Shown piece after piece: positions 29,259-62,222 of a DNA stretch of 64,000 nt. A program made the translations under genes and the position numbers. The stretch covers positions 536,022 to 600,021 of the forward strand of contig JARVKI010000014.1 of the NCBI GenBank assembly GCA_036674765.1, given 5' to 3'. Each line of letters starts with the position of its first letter. Positions within the stretch are counted from its first letter, which is position 1. Source of the stretch: Seiridium cupressi (Eukaryota > Ascomycota > Sordariomycetes > Amphisphaeriales > Sporocadaceae). A model generated the notes under the pieces. That model was given only the letters and a program-made list of their open reading frames with translations. It was not told the DNA's origin and did no database searches.

Positions 29259-32200
29259 TTTGAGTATCGCTGGAAGTGGATGGGAATAAAGCTTGCAATC
29301 TTGTAGAGTATGAGTGACCGATGTCAGAACAAGAGGGCTAGGAAAATGTCGACTACGCGGCTTCGACTATTTATGTCTGGAAATCTGGCTAGACGTGGAT
29401 GAGTTGTGAGAAGCATAGTCCCATATCATCGTTATACCACCCCTGCCAATGATGTTTCCTTCGTCCTGTGCAAAAATCCCTGGATAGCCTATCGCTAGCT
29501 TTGATAATAGTATCAGAAAGCAATTATTGGTCTTTCGACGCCTGGGAACTCATACGGCTCGTGGAGACAATAATTGGTCCATAAGCTTGAATGCATGGGA
29601 CTTTACTAGACTGGGTCTTGCATCCATGTTGCATAGGATATATTTAGATACCTTAGAAGCCTCTTACATATCTTGGGTCTTGTAAGCACTATGACCACTC
29701 GATCGCTTGCCATGCATTAAAGAGCTGCGGGTATCGTGTGGAGGAATGACATTTAATGATCTCGCATCCTCGTGACAGCTGAACCACTGGAAAAACTACG
29801 ATCTACCGTCACAGAAAACAAACAGGCGACCAAACAGCTTATAGGTGTTTGTATTATCTGTATTGCCGGTGTGTATTTGGTGCTTGACCTATCCATGTTT
29901 GGAAGATCCTATGTCCACTTTCCATTCTGTGTTCTGGAGCAGCTGTGCAGACCGCCATGTCCAACTATTCGAAATTGAATACATCTTCTAGCATGCAGAA
30001 ATCAACCTTGAGAGGATAGAAACCATCATAACGAAGGTGAACGCAAGACGGTTCCGTCGAGCTCTGATGATGACGACATCAGCAAAAACGAAAGAGTTCC
30101 TAGGACTTCACTGTGCAGCAACGAGGCCGTCCCGACGCCGACGAATAGGCTAGTGTTTGAATTCAACTCATTTACATAGTCTCATATTGGCTGCAGATAT
30201 TCTCTTCATCGCACATGCTACTGGGTGGTTGCTTGGAGGACGGCTGTCTGACCCACACCCTGCAAAGAGTATGTCTTCGACGAAACTTAATCAGATCACA
30301 GTTGTATTAATCATGTTATGTGAAGCTGTTCTTCGAAACGCCATAAGGTTTGAAGAACGTTACTTCGATGATCGGCCTATCTTGAAGAACAGTGATGGAG
30401 CCTTGGACACCAACAAGAAGGGTGCCGACTTTTAATGGCCCACCGCGGCCATAATATGCGAAAGCCTGGAGATATCTGATGGAACGTAAGTTAGCTGCCA
30501 CGATGAGGTGGCAGCTAAATCCATGTTGTTTCACATGATTTACGTTCTTAGACGAGATTTCCGAGTAACCGAGGAGCTGGGTTAATTTTCTGGATAGAAA
30601 AGCCTGGTCAAACTCTTCGACGAGAGGGGCTATTACATGGAGGTTTCTGTATTCTGTGCTCTCCACTGCATTCAAAGGTTTCACCATTACGTTTACCGCG
30701 ATCACTTTCACACCGATCTATCGGAGAAGGACGACTTCGCGCTCAAGCAGCACACAGGTGACGGGAGCCCAAAAGAATATCAATGGAGCTCGCCATACTG
30801 ATGACTGGTAGACCACTGCTTGGATTGGCTAAGGCAATATGTCCAGTGCAATGCTGATGCGACACTTATACCGATCCGCTGGGTTGAAAGGTATCTGTTG
30901 CCCGAGGGAATAATACAAATATCATGTCTAACTTGTATCAAAGTACCGCTCGACTAGTTACTAGAGATTGGAGAAAGCACAGTTGTGTAGCCTATGAACT
31001 GATTGTCGACTTTATGGCGGCTCGGTCCTTTGATCCCTTCGAGCCTGGTTTGCTTGAACATCCAACATTTGGTACGTCTTTGTTTGCAAAGCTGGAACGA
31101 AAACGAATTGAGAGCCCAGGATGGTCATTTTCTCTCGGTCCAGGAGATCCGTATGATAACTATAGTCCTGGAACCGGATTCGTTGTGCTTCCAGAAGGGC
31201 ATAGGGCGTTGTTTGGTGGTGATCAAGCACCAAATGAATGAGCTCAGATAGCCAACAGTAATGAGCGTGTTCCTACAATGTACAGATGTGCTGGAGCATT
31301 TCGAGCCGGTATCAGTAAAATAAACCACGACTATGATATCCGCATATGTACATGGTGCTATCTTCTAGTCCGGGCCAAGTTATGCCTGTGGGGCATGCGG
31401 TCATCTCTGCTTCCGAAAATTATAGTATTGTCTCGCTAATGGATTCAGCGCCTGCATGCGCCATCTCATAGGTGCGTTGCCGGGGTGCGTTAGGGCATTT
31501 CTCCACGTTGCAGGGGACCATTCGTTCGGCAATGCGCTCCACCTCAGCCACTGACGACGGATCACATGTAGTCAAATGAACGTCGCAGAAATGAACGATT
31601 GATTCCTTGACAGTTATATTCGAAGTCGACTGTTCGTCATCGAGCTGGGCATTGCATGGGTCGTGTTGATCGGGCGAAGCCTGGGTAAAATGCCACAGTG
31701 ACATTCCTGCGCGTCTCGCGATTGAAACCAAACCCCCCACTCGATACTTGCTCCAATAGCCGCTGCTCACCTTGACTCAAGATTGTGGCTTGTTACACAG
31801 AGAAGTCATTCACCAATCAGAGTCTATAAATAAGTCTATAGGCATTTGTGAGGTATGTCTCGGTGGTCCGACTAATAATGTTATGTTTACTGTGGTTCTA
31901 AGGTAGTGTATATGGAGACCCTACATCTGTTCACAATCGCGACTTCTGTTCCGAAATCAAATGACCCAATCACAGGCACCAGGGAGCGTTAAGCTGATCA
32001 ATCAACAAACCGCGGCACTTTTCCTATGCATGCATACATGCATGCAGTGAGAGCGCGTGTAAGAGTATCGCGCTTATGGTCGCACGCAGCAGTATACGCG
32101 GCGGTTATCGTGTCGCACTACCTGCAACCTGCGGCTCCTGCAGTAGCCACCCATCAACCGGATCAATACCGAGGTCGGATCATTTTGACCTATGAAATCG

Positions 32201-42247: not shown

Positions 42248-43254
42248 CTATGCCGCCGTACAAGACGGCGGAAGACTATCCAGAGTTCCCAGCGGCTCGC
42301 CATCTCTATAGCCAGCTAGCTTGCTGTTGGCATATTCTTTCCAGCCGACGAATCGCGGACGCCGTTTCTGAGCGGGCTGCCAGTGAAGTTTCTTTGGTAG
42401 ATCCTCCCAATTTCGAATCAGATTGCCTTCGTACCAGTCTATCATCGCATCATAGTCCCGGCACACGCGATTGACCGCGAAATCGGGCTGTGGTGCTTCT
42501 TGGCCCTCGACCCAGTTGAAGAAAGTGATTTCAGGATTGGCGTAACACATCAGGTCCTGCAGTAGTGAGTCAAGACAGTGGTTGACGTGGGCCATCTGGA
42601 AGAGAGGCGGGGTGAAGTTGAAGCGACTGCCGTAGTAGTATTCGTAGTTGGTTATGAGATTCTTGCGCAACACGTCGAGACAGTGTACTTGATGTACGCC
42701 GTCCAGGATAGCGATGTAGCTGTTGGTCCCATAGCCGAAATCTTCCGGAACTTTGAGTACCATCTCCGGGTCTTTGCCCGCCCGTCTAACCTCTTCCTCG
42801 CTTACGGCGATGACGCCATTCTGGCCGATCCTCTTCCACGCCGCGTCTACCTCCGGGCTGGGCGGCGATCGATATATATGTCGCGGAATAGAGGGGTCCG
42901 GTAGCAATATGTCATCACGTTGAGTTTGATAATAAGTGACAGATAATCGATCGAGCAAGGCGCCTAGCTTATCAGGTAAGCATATATCCCTAGCTTTTGA
43001 ATGCACTCTTCAAAACACAGGAGAGCCCCAAACTCACCCTGCCACTCTATGCAGTGGGTGTTGTCAATATGGAAGTAGTTTCTTGCCAGTAGGAGTGTTA
43101 CAAAATTTGTAACGCATAGAAACGCCATCATAGGCAATTTCCCCCTGAAGCTCTTCCAGACCGATAATTGGGGCGAAACAGGGAGAGCTTCGCCCTTCAA
43201 CAACCCCATATCGCCCGAATCGTCCTGTTCTTGTGCGAGTACGACATACCCCAT
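42248..43254 (-). CDS. UstYa-like (DUF3328) oxidase, candidate RiPP-modifying enzyme
   Basis: Member of the fungal DUF3328 family. UstYa/UstYb and relatives catalyse oxidative cyclisation or other oxidations of Kex2-processed ribosomal peptides (ustiloxin, phomopsin, asperipin-2a). Two exons, 43254-43038 and 42963-42248, give 310 aa; the GTGAGT donor and CTAG acceptor join EWQ to GALLDRL in frame. Layout: short cytosolic leader, one membrane segment at about 40-57 (LPMMAFLCVTNFVTLLLA), then a luminal domain with PSPEVDAAWKRI, the first motif HQVHC (163-167) and the second HVNHC (198-202), followed by the usual DLMC (209-212). Both family-defining HxxHC motifs are intact, as is the Cys of DLMC. 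It is transcribed away from the repeat-peptide gene, 1.5 kb off, which suggests a divergently controlled pair. DUF3328 enzymes also occur in non-ribosomal clusters (cyclochlorotine), so substrate assignment is by neighbourhood. Confidence 0.92.
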
Positions 43255-44748
43255 GGCTGCTATAGTGGGAGGTCAATGGCACCTCAAAGAAAACATATAC
43301 TTGACCGTAAATTGAGTTGTTGTCAACCGATCGTAAAGTATTAAAATGCAAAGCGGATTATTCCCTTGGAAAAGACAAGACTTTGGTGAGTAGCTGCTTT
43401 CAGATGCCACCTCACATTACTAAAATCATTTTCTCCCATACAACTAGTGAAGACCTGCAAAAAGAAAATTTTTGTGCAGACGCTTTCATTTATCGTGTCT
43501 CAAAGGCCTGAATTGCAAGTTTAGAGTCGGGTTGGGTTGATTCACCTTACGTGACCTAATATCCCAGCCTTTCGATTTCGCAATTGAAGCCATTCCCGTA
43601 CGCCCCGTAAGCGATAAAGCTAATCTGGCAATACAACTAACTAGATTAAGGTTTTTACCGCTGGGCGGTCAATTCTAAACAGAAAACCTTAGGCCACTAA
43701 AAGGCCAAGCATTTGGATGAGAGTTTGAAATTCAGCAAATGCTTTGGCTTTTACTGGCCAATTCTACTACATTCACGCATTGAGCGTTGCTGTGCGATAA
43801 AAGCCTCAATTAGTAGAGGTCGTTTTGTATCAACAAAACACAGTACGATTTGGTAATTAGTCAGTATACATACTTGAACCCTGGCATATGATATTATGCA
43901 TTTTTCAAACTGTACATGCCACCTTTAAAACGATCATACTACCAGATTGTATGTTCACTGATCTCTTCGGAGTTCCGAGGCAATGGTAAATGGACCCCGG
44001 ACGCCTCCTTAATGCGATAAATGACCGGCAAGGCACCCTTGTTAATTCTCTCTTCCACCTTACGGGAAACTCGTGACAATTGCGTTGAGAGGGACTGGAC
44101 TGTTCTTTGCAGAAGGTTCTTTGCCGCTCCGAAATAGACTATGGGTATGCAAGGCTCCTTACCATGACTTCACTCTACATTCCATCGCCTAGATTAGGTT
44201 ATTATTTTGCAATGGATTCGCTTGTTGTATCCTTATTGCGCTATGATCGCTCAATAATCATCTGCCAAAGTAAAATCTACAAAAGCGTAGAGTTTTGACC
44301 CACCCTGGGGAAATAAGCATGTGGCCCAGGCAAGTATACTTGAATAATTTTAGGCTCTCTACGTTGCGAGGTTCTGTAACCTTGAATCTGTGAAAACAAT
44401 GGTATACCGTTAAACTTAATGGCGATTGGCAGTTTGCTCTTGCCTTCTGCCTGTGAGTTTGGAATTTCAGGGTTTGTACCTGTCTCGTACGAGGAAAAGA
44501 CGTCATTTCAACCTCCAAGGCACTATTTCGTTGTCAATTCAATATGAAGGCTTTCACTTCGGCACGGATGACTTATTCCAGAGCATTTGTAATCTGCAGT
44601 CTCCTAGGAGACTCATTTGTATAAAGTCGCGTCAATTCCCTGGAGCATATACAACTCGATATTCAGAGACATAAGCACCAAGAAAGTGATCCAAGTGCAG
44701 AGTGTTCTAACTTTCTAAGCCGGAATACACCCAGCACCTACACCAACG
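43255..44748. promoter_or_regulatory. Divergent promoter region between UstYa-like gene and repeat-peptide gene
   Basis: 1.5 kb with no supported gene; open frames 43317-43511, 44107-44298 and 44426-44674 have no features. A near-palindrome TCGGAGTTCCGA at 43967-43978 has CGG and CCG half-sites spaced by four bases, the style of a Zn2Cys6 regulator site. Part of it (GAGTTCCG) recurs near 46953 upstream of the alpha/beta hydrolase, in a different half-site arrangement. Chance occurrence of an 8-mer is not excluded. The sequence before the precursor ATG is C/T- and CA-rich with CAACGATG around the start. Confidence 0.4.
43967..43978. promoter_or_regulatory. Candidate Zn2Cys6-type binding site CGG-N4-CCG
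   Basis: TCGGAGTTCCGA, inverted TCGGA/TCCGA arms, sits about 710 bp from the UstYa-like start and 770 bp from the precursor start, roughly central in the divergent promoter. No regulator gene is visible in the window to pair with it. Confidence 0.3.
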
Positions 44749-45108
44749 ATGTTTTCTCCCAGGATCTTCGCGCTTCTGCTGGCCACAACCTCCATGACGG
44801 CTATTGCTGCCCCCATTGCTGGAGGCTCTCAAGGTACTTCCGTTATTCACCTTTTAGGCCGTAACTAGCTGTTTGGAGGTGTATCTGACATCCATCAAAT
44901 AGTGCGACAAGCCGTTGCTGAAGAGGATCTCGAGCCCGGTGCATGGAACGCAGTAGTGATTACCAGTAGTGCCGAAAAACGCGCCGAGGATCTTGACCCT
45001 GGCGCATGGAATGCCGTGGTTATCACCAGCAGTGCTGAAAAGCGAGCGGAAGAAGATCTTGAACCTGGTGCGTGGAATGCTGTGGTCATCACCAGTAGCG
45101 CCGAATAA
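44749..45108 (+). CDS. Kex2-processed multicore secreted peptide precursor (candidate dikaritin RiPP precursor)
   Basis: Two exons, 44749-44833 and 44903-45108, give 96 aa; the 69-bp intron separates the leader from the repeats. Residues 1-20 are a signal peptide (MFSPRIFALLLATTSMTAIA). A short spacer, APIAGGSQVRQAVAE, follows, then three tandem units of about 21 residues: acidic EDLEP or EDLDP, invariant PGAWNAVVITSSAE, and Lys-Arg at 54-55 and 75-76. The last unit ends at SSAE without KR because the stop follows. Kex2 cleavage in the Golgi would release three nearly identical peptides. The repeats are identical in protein but use different codons throughout (GTAGTGATT, GTGGTTATC and GTGGTCATC for Val-Val-Ile), so the peptide sequence is under selection. 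The partner UstYa-like gene points to oxidative modification, probably at or around the single Trp. Alternatives: an unmodified secreted peptide or pheromone; it lacks the Cys/Trp pattern of known alpha-type pheromones. No standard annotation would be expected to name this gene. Confidence 0.9.
44918..45105 (+). repeat. Three in-frame tandem repeats of ~63 bp encoding the peptide cores
   Basis: Units begin at GAGGATCTCGAG, GAGGATCTTGAC and GAAGATCTTGAA. They share the amino-acid sequence almost completely but differ at many third codon positions, so they are an old duplication kept by selection and not a recent slippage product. Confidence 0.9.
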
Positions 45109-45928
45109 TGCGCCGAATATGAGCGTATTGTGTAGAACACAATTGCTACTTCGAGAGCAGTAGGACAGTAATTGAGCGAATTGTTCAGAGGCTCCTTGCA
45201 GAGCAGTTTGGCTAATGACTGCCTCGAGTTGTTATTGACTGTTTTAGGAGGGGAAGAGAGTGGTTGTTCTCCGGTACGGTCGCGGATGGGATGATACGAA
45301 ACAAAGCTCTCTTCACACCACTGGCTTACTAAGACGCTGTTTGGATGGCAGTAGCAGATGCCGAAGACTTAGCATAGATCTCGATATGAGGAATCAACAA
45401 ACGCTACTGGCGTAATAAGACGTGAATTCTTTAAGAAGGGTGACTGATGCTGAGAAAGTAAAAGACTTCCAGACCAATGTAGAGAAGCTAGTGCTAGAAC
45501 TATTCAGAAGCGTGCTGATTATGGTGGTAAAGAAGATATATATCTAGGTTCAGGTATGTCTTGATACATGGGCCCGAGTAATAGGCACACGGCTTTGGTC
45601 TGATTGTAATACCGACGTCTCGTGCATCCATTGTCCGCCTCAGCCATTATCTGTCTACACGCTATCATAAAAAAATGTAAGCTGAATTAGTGATCGTTTC
45701 AAGCAACAATAGAACAAATTCACGAGTAACATATGCGGCACTTTTTGGACAGGGTTCCTACGACCGGTTCCTGATTCGCTTTTGATATCTATGGATCTCA
45801 AGCATGGATTTGATTGGAGGTCTGATGTGCTTCAGAGAAAGTGAGGATTTATGCCGTTGAAGTTGCTTGATCCTTGTGCGATGATGCCCCGGATTTTGCC
45901 CTCTATCACCAAGTATTAGAAGACTATT
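45109..45928. other. Intergenic region downstream of the peptide gene
   Basis: 0.8 kb between two convergent genes (peptide precursor plus, alpha/beta hydrolase minus). No open frame of interest and no further repeat units were found after 45108. Confidence 0.6.
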
Positions 45929-46762
45929 TTATAAATCCTTGAAGTCCGCGGGTAGTTTCTCGGAATTGACCCAGGCGTTGACACCATGTGCAAACAGACC
46001 CGGAAGCTGGATGTTCCACCAGTGCACTGCCTCTTGTACAACCACTGCCGCATTGTTTACACCCTTCTTCTGGCCAGCTTCCCTGAGCACGCGACCCATC
46101 TCCTTAACGCCGTCGACTTGATCCATTTTTGCACCTGCCACCACACACGTTCTGACTCCTGAGTTGGCTACCCTCTCAACAGTCTCCCAACCGAATCTGT
46201 TTCCGAGGGCATCAGAAACCTCTGCCGACAAGGCTTTTGAGCGATTCTGAACCATCGCTTCCTTGAGTGCAGGGCTCACAACCAGCCCCTGCTTTCTCTC
46301 TACCAGTTCATTCAGACCGGGAATCCTGTTGATCACGAAATTCATGGCTCCCAGGGCAGATGGGTGCTGCATGAACCACTTGTATACGCCCTGGTACGGC
46401 ATCGCGCCCGAGCTGAAGCAGCTGCTGACGACGTGCGGATGGCGCGCTACCAGCTCGAGGGCGGTGAAGCCGCCCATGGACATGCCTACAACGTGTGCTT
46501 TCCCCCCATGTGCGTGCTTGGTTATCACATTGGCGACAGCATCAGCGGCTGTTTCGAGTGAGAATGAAATCAGATCGCGCGACCCGGAATGATGCGGCAA
46601 ATCTACAAGGATCAGATGGTGAGAGGCAAGGACTGCGTCGCTGGCGACAGCGTTCCACTCAAGATGGCACGAGCCGGCGCCATGAAGGAAGAGAATGGTG
46701 AGATGTCCTGATTTGTTCCTTTCCTCGAAGAATAGTTCTTGCGTTTGATTTGGTGACGCCAT
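45929..46762 (-). CDS. Alpha/beta hydrolase fold protein
   Basis: Intronless, 277 aa. It has the canonical order of an alpha/beta hydrolase: oxyanion loop LFLHGAGSCHLEW near residue 25-37, nucleophile elbow GMSMGG near residue 95 (Ser), an acid on the segment CVVAGAKMDQVDGVKE, and a C-terminal His in EAVHWWNIQLPGLF. No signal peptide or membrane segment, so probably cytosolic. Reaction and substrate cannot be told from sequence; it may be an esterase, thioesterase or epoxide-type hydrolase. It lies convergently 0.8 kb from the repeat-peptide gene, and its upstream region shares GAGTTCCG with the peptide promoter, so it could belong to the same pathway. No known dikaritin pathway requires such an enzyme to my knowledge, so this is only proximity. 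Confidence 0.88.
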   Translation of the reverse strand: MASPNQTQELFFEERNKSGHLTILFLHGAGSCHLEWNAVASDAVLASHHLILVDLPHHSGSRDLISFSLETAADAVANVITKHAHGGKAHVVGMSMGGFTALELVARHPHVVSSCFSSGAMPYQGVYKWFMQHPSALGAMNFVINRIPGLNELVERKQGLVVSPALKEAMVQNRSKALSAEVSDALGNRFGWETVERVANSGVRTCVVAGAKMDQVDGVKEMGRVLREAGQKKGVNNAAVVVQEAVHWWNIQLPGLFAHGVNAWVNSEKLPADFKDL

Positions 46763-59128: not shown

Positions 59129-60062
59129 TAGTTCCCCCCACAATTACACCGACTGCATTAGTCCTGATCCAACTGGTTGTGCTATCATAGACGCGCACTC
59201 ATTGTTGAGATCATTGTTGAGAGCCGCGAATGCCGCGCTGAAAGAAGGCCAGGAGACCTCGGAAACCTGCCATTACTTGGCTTCTATTGGTTGTCTTCCC
59301 AAACTCGAACATTAATTACATGTATTCCATTATGATGCCAATCTTTAACATCATTTTGGTGTTGGGTTTTCATCGAACTAGATGTTCTTTGGCATGACCT
59401 TTACAAGAGGCAAAGATGTCGCTCATGCAGTGGCCTTACGAGTACATGGGATGTGTGGTGTTACATTGTTCTGAATGGGATCAGAGGGTCAAAAATAGCA
59501 GAAGACAATAATTACGGGTAGATTATGGTTCAACTTAATTCTACTTAACTTCTTTTAGTCTGGAGTGGTTGCCGTAACCATGTGATTATAGATTTTCTAC
59601 TCTGGAGAACTCCACGAAACAAGGATAGGAAAAAAAAAAATAGATAATAAAGAATTGCATATAAATACTGCTCTTCCAGCCGCTGCGAGTTTATAGTCGA
59701 GAGGATGGCAGAGTTGATTATAGTGCTTTGGGTATTTATGCGTCTCATTTTGAATAGGCATTGATTGGAGCTACACGATTTGTGCATGGCACGTGACCCT
59801 CAGCGGGGCTTAAATAACTCGGTCATCCTCGGGAATCAATGTCGTAAACCCTAGCATTACATCTTGACTGGCTATTGTCCCACCAATGACATCCCCAAAT
59901 CGTATTACTCATTCCGGGACATATCATATGGGCTGTAAAGCCTCTTGTCACTCACATTTGAAAGGCGACTGTCTCAAACCCGCGGTCTGACTTCTGTCAT
60001 ACTCGGTCTGGAATTACGTTAAACCTGACATAGCAGATCAACTCGCTTATTCTCAAAATAAT
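59129..60062. other. Intergenic region
   Basis: 0.93 kb before the HET gene. The first ~190 bases may be coding 3' sequence of the F-box gene in another frame. Further on only AT-rich sequence with an A-run at about 59631-59641; no gene supported. Confidence 0.5.
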
Positions 60063-62222
60063 ATGTCCATTCGCGACTCTCTCATAACCAACCCTGGGGG
60101 TGTGGATGACGAGGTCCAGGGGAAGGTTTGCGAGGTATGTGGCAACCTGGATAGCCTACGGTTACTCTCGAACAGCGCCGAAGAGCTAAGCGAAGGTGAT
60201 GTCAAACATGACAAATACGGTTCATTTTCTCGACGAAACTTAGGAGACTTCGATCTGCCCGGCAAAGATGGTTGCTCTATTTGCTCTGTCCTTAGCGAAA
60301 TATGCCACTTTTTCACACATGAGAGTTCTGATCTCCAGCGTAAGCGGGTACGAGTATATCTTCCTGGTGGAAGAGGGCTTCCCGAGATGATCATCGATGA
60401 TTTTGGCGTGGCCCAGACAATACAGTTATACACACCTATAGGTATTATGACATACGAAAGACGGGAAATGCAGTTGCTTATGAATACAGGATTTGACCCT
60501 TGCTGGAATCGCATCCCGGTTCTCCCGGAACTATTGCTTGATCGGCAATCATCAGCTTCTCTTGACTTCATTCAGTCCTGTTTAAAATCATGTATCGATC
60601 ATCACCAATCGTGCAGGTCGCCCGCGTCGAGATTTCCCACTCGCGTGCTCGACGTTGGAATCGATCACGGTAGTCGAATATGTCTGATAAAGACTGACAC
60701 GAGATCATTCGAACCCTACATTGCTTTGAGTTATTGTTGGGGTCAAGATGGCGCCTTGAAAAAAACCACTAGGGAAAACATGGGCACTTTCGAGTCTGGT
60801 ATTGATGTTCAAGAACTCCCAGTTGTTTTCCGCGAGTGCATTTCACTATCTAGGAGCCTTGGAATACGGTACGTTTGGATTGATGCCCTATGTATTATTC
60901 AGGATGATCGCCAAGATTGGGAGAAAGAGTCGTCGAGGATGTCAGATACTTATGCCCAAGCTTTCCTCACAATCGGCGCGTCCATGTCTGCATCAACTTC
61001 AAAGACTTTTCTGCGCATCTCCCCTGAAGATATGGAAAACGAAGAGTTTTCGAAAGAAATCAGTTTCAATGGAAAACTCTCAGAATTAAGGGCAAGGAGA
61101 ATTCCAGAAGTGGGAATTCATTCGCGGTGGACGGATTATCATGAGCGAGGTGCTTACCGAAGCGAACCATGGTCGCAACGGGGCTGGACGCTCCAAGAGC
61201 AACTCCTGTCACCCAGGCTTCTAATTTTCACATCGTCTGAGATACAGTGGACTTGTCAGGAAATTCAAAAGTGCGAGTGTCGATCACTCCTCAATCAGCG
61301 AAGACTGTTTGGGGGACATTCATGGGCCGATATCGATAATGCGTCAGTCGCATTTTCCTTCTGGCACAAGGCAGTCGAGAACTACTCTATCAGAGCATTG
61401 ACTCATAGTGCCGATCGACTCCCTGCACTGAGTGGCATAGCTCAAGCCATTCAGAAACGGACTGGGTCTAAATACGTGGCTGGGCTATGGAGTGACAACA
61501 TCGCGGAAGATCTTCTGTGGGAACGAGTTGGGGATTTGAAGCCTATGACGAGCTACCAAGCACCCTCTTTCTCATGGGCGTCAATAGATGGCGAAATCGA
61601 CTATCGGTGCTACATGAACGGGAGGCACCTATACCAGGACATATCTCAAGTCCTTTCATTGGATGCAGATATCCATGGATGCAACCAGTTTGGTACCGTT
61701 CGTGACGGAGCAATAAGGATCCGTGGCCCGCTAACGCCCGCCAAACTGGCCAGAGGGGACGCCGATGGGTCTTATTCTGTCAATATTGCTAGAAGAAATA
61801 TTAATTTTCAGGCAGATACAGTCCTTTCAGCCTTCATACGCCACTCAGAGGACGGTAATTCGGAGGCAGTGGCTTGCAGATACCGCACCCAAATGGAGCA
61901 ACTTGCACAAACCATGACAGCCCTAGATTCTACATTTCAGGTGGAACATGGCTCTAGGGCTAACAAGATGGATATGACCTATTCTATCTCCCTTGAGGAT
62001 GGCGCGCAATGTTGGCTACTGAGTCTTGGGTTCTATCTACCATCTCATTCAGCTTCGGCACAGGTCTACGAGTTCTTGGTGTTGGGAAAACACCCTGAAC
62101 GGCCAGAGAATTTTGAGAGGTACGTCTTAACGAATTTCAAACAACTCCCGTCTGAGGGCCTTTCTCAGCTATCTTGGGCCAGTGAAATTTTGTCAGAACA
62201 ACTCGTCAAACGCACAGTATAA
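60063..62222 (+). CDS. HET-domain (heterokaryon incompatibility) protein
   Basis: Single-exon 719-aa protein. HET domains mediate non-self recognition and programmed cell death after fusion of unlike hyphae. The N-terminal region has paired cysteines (VCEVCGNLD at about 21 and CSICSVL near 70), as in many HET proteins. The HET domain covers about 215-390: YIALSYCWGQDG, then VWIDALCIIQDDRQDWEKES, MSDTYAQAFLTIGAS, and the closing block SQRGWTLQEQLLSPRLLIFT with the conserved W-T-x-Q-E. The C-terminal ~330 residues have no domain that I recognise (no NACHT, WD40 or ankyrin motifs). The frame is intact despite lying only ~0.7 kb from a RIP-degraded AT-rich block. Confidence 0.94.
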   Translation: MSIRDSLITNPGGVDDEVQGKVCEVCGNLDSLRLLSNSAEELSEGDVKHDKYGSFSRRNLGDFDLPGKDGCSICSVLSEICHFFTHESSDLQRKRVRVYLPGGRGLPEMIIDDFGVAQTIQLYTPIGIMTYERREMQLLMNTGFDPCWNRIPVLPELLLDRQSSASLDFIQSCLKSCIDHHQSCRSPASRFPTRVLDVGIDHGSRICLIKTDTRSFEPYIALSYCWGQDGALKKTTRENMGTFESGIDVQELPVVFRECISLSRSLGIRYVWIDALCIIQDDRQDWEKESSRMSDTYAQAFLTIGASMSASTSKTFLRISPEDMENEEFSKEISFNGKLSELRARRIPEVGIHSRWTDYHERGAYRSEPWSQRGWTLQEQLLSPRLLIFTSSEIQWTCQEIQKCECRSLLNQRRLFGGHSWADIDNASVAFSFWHKAVENYSIRALTHSADRLPALSGIAQAIQKRTGSKYVAGLWSDNIAEDLLWERVGDLKPMTSYQAPSFSWASIDGEIDYRCYMNGRHLYQDISQVLSLDADIHGCNQFGTVRDGAIRIRGPLTPAKLARGDADGSYSVNIARRNINFQADTVLSAFIRHSEDGNSEAVACRYRTQMEQLAQTMTALDSTFQVEHGSRANKMDMTYSISLEDGAQCWLLSLGFYLPSHSASAQVYEFLVLGKHPERPENFERYVLTNFKQLPSEGLSQLSWASEILSEQLVKRTV

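What the first reader, a model, noticed from the sequence alone, without database searches (positions are those of the whole stretch)
44749..45108. Undescribed Kex2-type repeat precursor with a Trp-centred core, PGAWNAVVITSSAE x3
Seen: signal peptide, one intron, three repeats with identical 14-residue segments separated by Lys-Arg, 96 aa. Known: fungal dikaritins (ustiloxin, phomopsin, asperipin-2a, epichloecyclins) are made from exactly such precursors, and known cores are mostly Tyr/Phe based. Inference: the product is a new modified peptide built around GAWNAVVI or a neighbouring stretch. The acidic EDLEP/EDLDP flank looks like a spacer trimmed after Kex2 cleavage.
Basis: partly seen in the sequence, partly recalled or inferred. 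Interest (0 to 1): 0.93.

Follow-up and report, generated by a model that had tools for sequence, protein, structure and literature searches.

The report
Fungal repeat-peptide precursor beside copper oxidase
In a cypress-canker fungus, a small secreted protein carries three identical tryptophan-containing peptides cut apart at Lys-Arg sites and sits next to a gene for a copper-dependent peptide-modifying enzyme, so it very probably makes an unknown modified peptide of an already known fungal kind.

Summary
44749-45108 (+) encodes a 96-residue protein (intron 44834-44902) with a signal-like start and three identical PGAWNAVVITSSAE segments, two of them followed by Lys-Arg. Between copies every DNA difference (7-9 per pair) is silent, and 100 shuffles gave no comparable array. 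NCBI carries the same protein for Seiridium cupressi; S. unicorne has an ortholog with identical repeats. Best reading: a dikaritin-type Kex2-processed repeat precursor whose peptide is oxidised, perhaps crosslinked, by that enzyme. It is a new member of a known kind: a survey found Trp in 20.5% of UstYa-linked repeat precursors. I saw no Trp crosslink by a UstYa enzyme in the passages read. Chemistry, exact core and expression are untested. Of 30 UstYa regions in the genome I scanned 14; 6 hold such precursors, 3 of them with Trp.

The parts
44749..45108 (+). Precursor gene, 96-aa Kex2-type repeat protein (SCUP234_03385), including stop
44749..44833 (+). Exon 1: signal-like start MFSPRIFALLLATTSMTAIAAP and beginning of pro-region
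   Evidence: hydropathy peak at residues 6-14, AIAA before P22
44834..44902 (+). Intron, 69 nt, GTACTT...CTGAC...AAATAG; NCBI's S. unicorne model implies the alternative acceptor 44878
44935..44976 (+). Repeat copy 1, PGAWNAVVITSSAE, followed by KR
44998..45039 (+). Repeat copy 2, PGAWNAVVITSSAE, followed by KR
45064..45105 (+). Repeat copy 3, PGAWNAVVITSSAE, followed by the stop codon
42248..43254 (-). UstYa/DUF3328 family enzyme, 310 aa, intron 42964-43037, N-terminal membrane helix (by eye), HQVHC and HVNHC motifs
43255..44748 (.). 1494-bp intergenic region between the divergent UstYa and precursor genes (presumed shared promoter region)
   Evidence: promoter function is inference
45929..46762 (-). 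Alpha/beta hydrolase gene downstream (277-aa frame; NCBI's model of its relative P0024 has 356 aa); cluster membership not established

Best explanation
The gene encodes a secreted Kex2-processed repeat precursor of the ustiloxin/dikaritin kind. Steps: (1) the protein enters the secretory pathway by its signal peptide (inferred from sequence); (2) Golgi Kex2 protease cuts after the two Lys-Arg sites, giving three fragments that each carry PGAWNAVVITSSAE, and a carboxypeptidase removes the basic residues (inferred from the family); (3) the acidic (A)E(E)DL(E/D)P lead-in is trimmed, perhaps after the conserved proline, and TSSAE may also be trimmed (inferred); (4) the neighbouring membrane-bound UstYa/DUF3328 dicopper enzyme oxidises the peptide, most plausibly at or from Trp, the only aromatic residue, towards an aliphatic side chain such as Val or Ile (the enzyme gene and its copper motif are shown; the reaction is inferred); (5) the small modified peptide is secreted. 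Its biological role is not known from these data.
For: Silent-only divergence of three identical 14-mers; none in 100 shuffles; identical NCBI gene model and a S. unicorne ortholog with identical repeats. Intact UstYa gene 1.5 kb away, divergent, with H163, H166, C167, H198, H201, C202, C212 and C240 invariant in the 21 aligned sequences; the first six are the HxxHC(x)nHxxHC dicopper motif shown to be essential in CctR (PMC12435403, passages). The S. unicorne precursor and UstYa ortholog (99% identical) both report a longest contig of 371145 bases, so they most likely share it. In a kingdom-wide survey the count of DUF3328 genes is highest right next to such precursors (PMC7329392). Of 13 other UstYa regions of this genome that I scanned, 5 also hold KR-separated repeat precursors. 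The one residue differing in the second S. cupressi isolate lies in the spacer, not the repeat.
Against: No expression, peptide or enzyme data. Relatives of the precursor were found only in Seiridium (the search needs shared 5-residue words and sees annotated proteins only), although UstYa relatives at 54-69% identity exist in Neopestalotiopsis, a Xylariaceae species and unnamed sources. Only two Kex2 sites; copy 1 lacks one upstream. No Tyr in the repeat, whereas 65.6% of UstYa-linked repeats have Tyr, and Trp is not enriched near UstYa (20.5% with, 24.5% without). No tyrosinase, peptidase, methyltransferase or transporter was recognised among the frames scanned from 23.1 to 62.2 kb; small exons and unscanned frames could be missed.
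Confidence: 0.8

Rival explanations
1. The precursor releases a linear, unmodified secreted peptide (signal, effector or pheromone-like), and the adjacent UstYa gene serves something else.
For: 6120 of 7878 surveyed repeat precursors have no DUF3328 gene among the 15 closest genes, and Trp is as common in those repeats as in UstYa-linked ones (PMC7329392). The repeat has no Tyr.
Against: UstYa is the immediate divergent neighbour and the pair probably shares a contig in S. unicorne. In the survey, mating-factor and pheromone precursors were, with three exceptions, not accompanied by DUF3328 (abstract). The repeat has no Cys, which filamentous-ascomycete alpha-pheromones usually have (recalled, not from a call).
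Confidence: 0.13
2. A branch of the best explanation: UstYa modifies the peptide without a Trp crosslink, for example by hydroxylation, dehydrogenation or chlorination of aliphatic side chains.
For: DUF3328 enzymes hydroxylate (CctR), halogenate (ApnU) and cyclise (AprY) (PMC12435403, passages); dehydroamino acids are also credited to UstYa proteins (title of a cited reference seen). The core is rich in Val, Ile, Ala and Thr.
Against: None direct; sequence cannot decide between this and a crosslink.
Confidence: 0.4
3. Not a working gene: a chance or decayed repeat frame.
For: No transcription data were available.
Against: Silent-only divergence, none in 100 shuffles, conservation in a second species.
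Confidence: 0.02

Closest known systems
Dikaritins (ustiloxin, phomopsin, asperipin-2a) and their Kex2-processed repeat precursors
   Same: Signal-like start, tandem repeats with KR sites, adjacent UstYa/DUF3328 gene.
   Different: Their crosslinks are built from Tyr (ustiloxin, phomopsin, asperipin-2a); here Trp is the only aromatic residue of the repeat. No tyrosinase recognised. Three copies only.
Victorin precursor (Cochliobolus victoriae)
   Same: Multi-core, Kex2-type precursor without a Tyr-based crosslink (crosslink between Phe and Leu; PMC9233826 passage).
   Different: Different core; chlorination and cluster-encoded peptidases there, none recognised here.
Kex2-processed repeat proteins (KEPs) with Trp in the repeat, as surveyed in PMC7329392
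   Same: Same architecture; 20.5% of 1758 DUF3328-linked precursors contain Trp.
   Different: For this sequence no relative outside Seiridium was found in the one search made.
Plant burpitides made by BURP-domain copper cyclases
   Same: Working analogy only: a copper enzyme with four planar histidines crosslinks peptide side chains (passages; Trp examples such as moroidin and repeat-type precursors are recalled).
   Different: Different enzyme family and organism; not a family membership claim.

Membership tests
Kex2-processed repeat protein (KEP) | N-terminal signal peptide | tested here: met
   Hydropathy peak 2.32 at residues 6-14 and AIAA before P22; simple hydropathy only, no dedicated predictor run
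Kex2-processed repeat protein (KEP) | At least 3 tandem repeats of at least 8 aa between Kex2 sites (definition in PMC7329392) | tested here: inconclusive
   Three repeats of 14 identical residues with KR between them; the first has no dibasic site before it and the last ends at the stop
Dikaritin / ust-RiPS pathway | UstYa/DUF3328 gene close to the precursor | tested here: met
   PF11807, E 6.3e-43, 147.6 bits against cut-off 25, next recognised gene, divergent
Dikaritin / ust-RiPS pathway | Enzyme carries the HxxHC(x)nHxxHC motif | tested here: met
   HQVHC and HVNHC; all six residues invariant in the 21 aligned sequences
Dikaritin / ust-RiPS pathway | Tyr in the core crosslinked through its phenol oxygen | tested here: not met
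   No Tyr in the repeat. Counts against a ustiloxin-type ether; victorin shows it is not required of all related products
Dikaritin / ust-RiPS pathway | Oxidised or cyclised peptide product | not testable with these tools
   No metabolomics available
Dikaritin / ust-RiPS pathway | Tyrosinase in the cluster (ustiloxin and phomopsin) | tested here: inconclusive
   No tyrosinase match among the frames scanned; not every frame was scanned and introns may hide short exons
Filamentous-ascomycete alpha-pheromone precursor | Cys-containing repeat, no DUF3328 neighbour | tested here: not met
   No Cys in the repeat, UstYa neighbour present; the Cys criterion is recalled

The most novel reading that the evidence does not exclude
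The UstYa enzyme crosslinks Trp to an aliphatic side chain (Val, Ile or Asn) in AWNAVVI, giving a fungal, dicopper-made counterpart of plant Trp-crosslinked peptides and, as far as the passages I read go, the first Trp-centred UstYa product; two other UstYa-linked precursors of the same genome (LYWASTLL and EEIWNSGKY repeats) would be further cases to test.
Probability: 0.35. Interest if true: 0.7.

Novelty: new member of a known kind. Interest (0 to 1): 0.4.

Why it matters
It is a compact, testable pair, one precursor and one dicopper-type oxidase, with Trp as the only aromatic residue. If the enzyme acts on Trp, it would widen the known chemistry of the UstYa family beyond Tyr and Phe. It also shows that one Seiridium genome carries several such precursor-enzyme pairs (6 among 14 regions scanned), an unexplored set of secreted peptides in a genus that causes cypress canker (abstracts in the listing).

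Tried and rejected
Direct-repeat search at DNA level gave nothing in the 44600-45300 region, presumably because the copies differ at many silent sites.

PDB sequence searches with the UstYa frame and with a 21-sequence profile found no credible solved relative (best E 0.25 and 0.98). No structure was predicted.

Alpha/beta hydrolase as a cluster member: 38 relatives at E up to 1e-40, mostly Fusarium. Only the longest contig per cluster is reported, so this test is weak: membership is neither supported nor excluded.

Second DUF3328 stretch at 30.6-30.9 kb as partner enzyme: its first motif reads CALHC, not HxxHC, and it lies about 14 kb away; not included.

A weak Laminin_G_3 match to the repeat frame (E 0.0047, 17.5 bits, cut-off 27.6) was rejected as chance.

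Cross-species DNA comparison was not possible: I had no fungal genome collection apart from the window's own assembly. The paper on the cyclase AprY (PMC12143957) is not held. No paper on the Seiridium genomes was found.

Full report
What is there. The window is the end of a 600,021-base contig of a 45.4-Mb assembly. Its 96-residue protein is identical to NCBI's SCUP234_03385 of Seiridium cupressi, Sporocadaceae, Amphisphaeriales. The gene at 44749-45108 has one 69-nt intron, 44834-44902, with a CTGAC branch-like sequence ending 13 nt before the intron's last base. The product has a hydrophobic start, a short pro-region and three copies of PGAWNAVVITSSAE. Copies 1 and 2 are each followed by Lys-Arg, copy 3 by the stop codon. 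Each copy is preceded by an acidic lead-in (EEDLE, EDLD, EEDLE). Copy 1 has no dibasic site before it.

More than chance. The three copies are identical in protein but differ at 9, 8 and 7 DNA positions; every difference is a silent third-position change. With about 10 silent and 32 replacement sites per copy, all-silent outcomes have probabilities of about 2e-6 to 4e-5 per pair. These pairs are not independent, and this is a simple site-count test. In 100 dinucleotide shuffles of the whole window there was no open frame with three or more copies of a 5-mer separated by KR/RR, and 0.19 per shuffle with two or more copies; the real window has one array. A second S. cupressi isolate differs by one residue, in the first spacer (D to E). 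S. unicorne has identical repeats and an annotated model with a different splice acceptor. Only these 3 of 336 candidates from a 5.8-billion protein set reached E 10; that search needs shared 5-residue words and sees only predicted proteins of similar length. In its own genome the two exons of this gene were the only matches found.

On the minus strand, 42248-43254 encodes a UstYa/DUF3328 protein (PF11807, E 6.3e-43), 310 aa with one 74-nt intron. NCBI's S. unicorne protein of 310 aa is 99% identical, and its reported longest contig, 371145 bases, is the same as that of the S. unicorne precursor, so they most likely lie on one contig; their distance there is not known. The two genes are divergent with 1494 bp between start codons. 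In an alignment of 21 sequences (all 20 relatives returned at E up to 1e-20, plus the query; several are truncated at the N-terminus), both HxxHC motifs and two C-terminal cysteines are invariant. In CctR this motif binds two coppers and alanine mutants of its His and Cys residues lost activity (PMC12435403, passages). A membrane helix near the N-terminus is read by eye.

Cluster extent. Downstream is an alpha/beta hydrolase (45929-46762, minus). It shares a contig length with the precursor in the second S. cupressi isolate, but outside Seiridium its relatives do not share reported contig lengths with the UstYa relatives, so I do not count it in. Fatty-acid desaturase, FMO-like and DSBA-like genes lie 6-12 kb further on; enoyl-CoA hydratase, AMP-binding and P450 genes lie on the other side. 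A scan of 79 frames between 39.0 and 51.5 kb, out of 96 that I had listed, found only the enoyl-CoA hydratase; that list left out 42.3-46.9 kb, where only the UstYa, precursor and hydrolase frames were scanned. No tyrosinase, methyltransferase, peptidase or transporter was recognised in the frames scanned from 23.1 to 62.2 kb; an M1 peptidase lies about 42 kb away. Exons hidden by introns may be missed. The simplest cluster is thus precursor plus one UstYa; asperipin-2a also has one DUF3328 gene.

Genome context. The assembly has 42 UstYa matches, which I group into 30 regions. I read around 14 of the 30: 12 fetched (four of them as a single stretch of at most 10 kb) and 2 in the window. KR-separated repeat precursors lie at 6 of these 14: the window, C19 (three copies with SIIIKSTDTY or NIIIKSSDTY), C41 (four copies with LYWASTLL), C67 (two copies with EEIWNSGKYVD), C10 (two copies with DFGIVGDTY or DFNVVGDTY) and C111 (two copies of DEAIPFYP). 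Three of the six contain Trp. The two-copy cases are weaker, since shuffles give 0.19 such hits per 64 kb, but signal-like starts are visible upstream by eye. Three other two-copy hits of the scan (in L014, L024 and L026) were set aside as doubtful or chance. In C111 and C19 the precursor repeats are on the opposite strand about 1.2-1.4 kb from the UstYa match, a divergent layout as here.

How it most likely works. Shown: the repeat protein, its selection signature, its conservation in two species, the intact neighbouring gene for a dicopper-type enzyme. Inferred from the family: secretion, Kex2 cleavage, trimming and oxidation by UstYa. Least certain: the exact core and the bond formed. The all-silent pattern covers the entire 14-mer, so sequence gives no reason to stop the core at Ile; TSSAE may be part of the product or an enzyme recognition sequence. 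The conserved Pro before Gly is a possible trimming point.

Comparison with what is known. Repeat precursors of this design are common: 7878 in 1345 of 1461 fungal strains, 1758 with DUF3328 among the 15 closest genes, with the count peaking at the adjacent gene; 65.6% of those have Tyr and 20.5% have Trp in the repeat, and Trp is not enriched relative to precursors without DUF3328 (24.5%) (PMC7329392: abstract, sections 3, 7, 13 and part 1 of section 6 read). The chemically known products use Tyr (ustiloxin, phomopsin, asperipin-2a, epichloecyclins) or Phe (victorin) (PMC9233826, passages; PMC12186524, passages). PMC12048977 (passages) gives the same description of dikaritin precursors. I saw no Trp crosslink by a UstYa enzyme in these passages or in the listings; subscription papers are mostly not held, so this is not proof of absence. 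The exact core strings are in no held paper text (figures and supplements not searched).

Verdict. The finding is real and the general interpretation right; the key support is the adjacent UstYa gene. It is a new member of a known kind with a Trp-only repeat for which I found no earlier report. Interest is moderate, and would rise if a Trp-centred UstYa reaction were shown.

Noticed in passing
window 30601-30890 (+): A second DUF3328 stretch, read across a 54-nt intron (30758-30811), has a normal second motif (HTDHC) but CALHC instead of HxxHC at the first, with in-frame stops just upstream; a divergent or decayed UstYa relative, or one with further introns.
   Followed up: partly
L021:6879-7322 (-), G000 C41: Four-copy repeat precursor with LYWASTLL and a signal-like start, about 2.4 kb from a UstYa match; a further apparently degenerate copy follows its stop.
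   Followed up: partly
L018:1573-2055 (+), G000 C19: Three-copy repeat precursor (NIIIKSSDTY-KR and variants), divergent from a UstYa match about 1.2 kb away.
   Followed up: partly
L024:910-1227 (-), G000 C67: Two-copy precursor with a long Trp-containing unit (FLGEEEIWNSGKYVDSK) lying between UstYa matches.
   Followed up: partly
P0010 (Xylariaceae sp. AK1471): 480-aa UstYa relative whose N-terminal half looks like an O-methyltransferase dimerisation region (by eye); possibly two neighbouring genes fused in annotation, hinting at a methyltransferase beside UstYa there.
   Followed up: no
window 59991-62219 (+): HET-domain (heterokaryon incompatibility) protein near the contig end.
   Followed up: no
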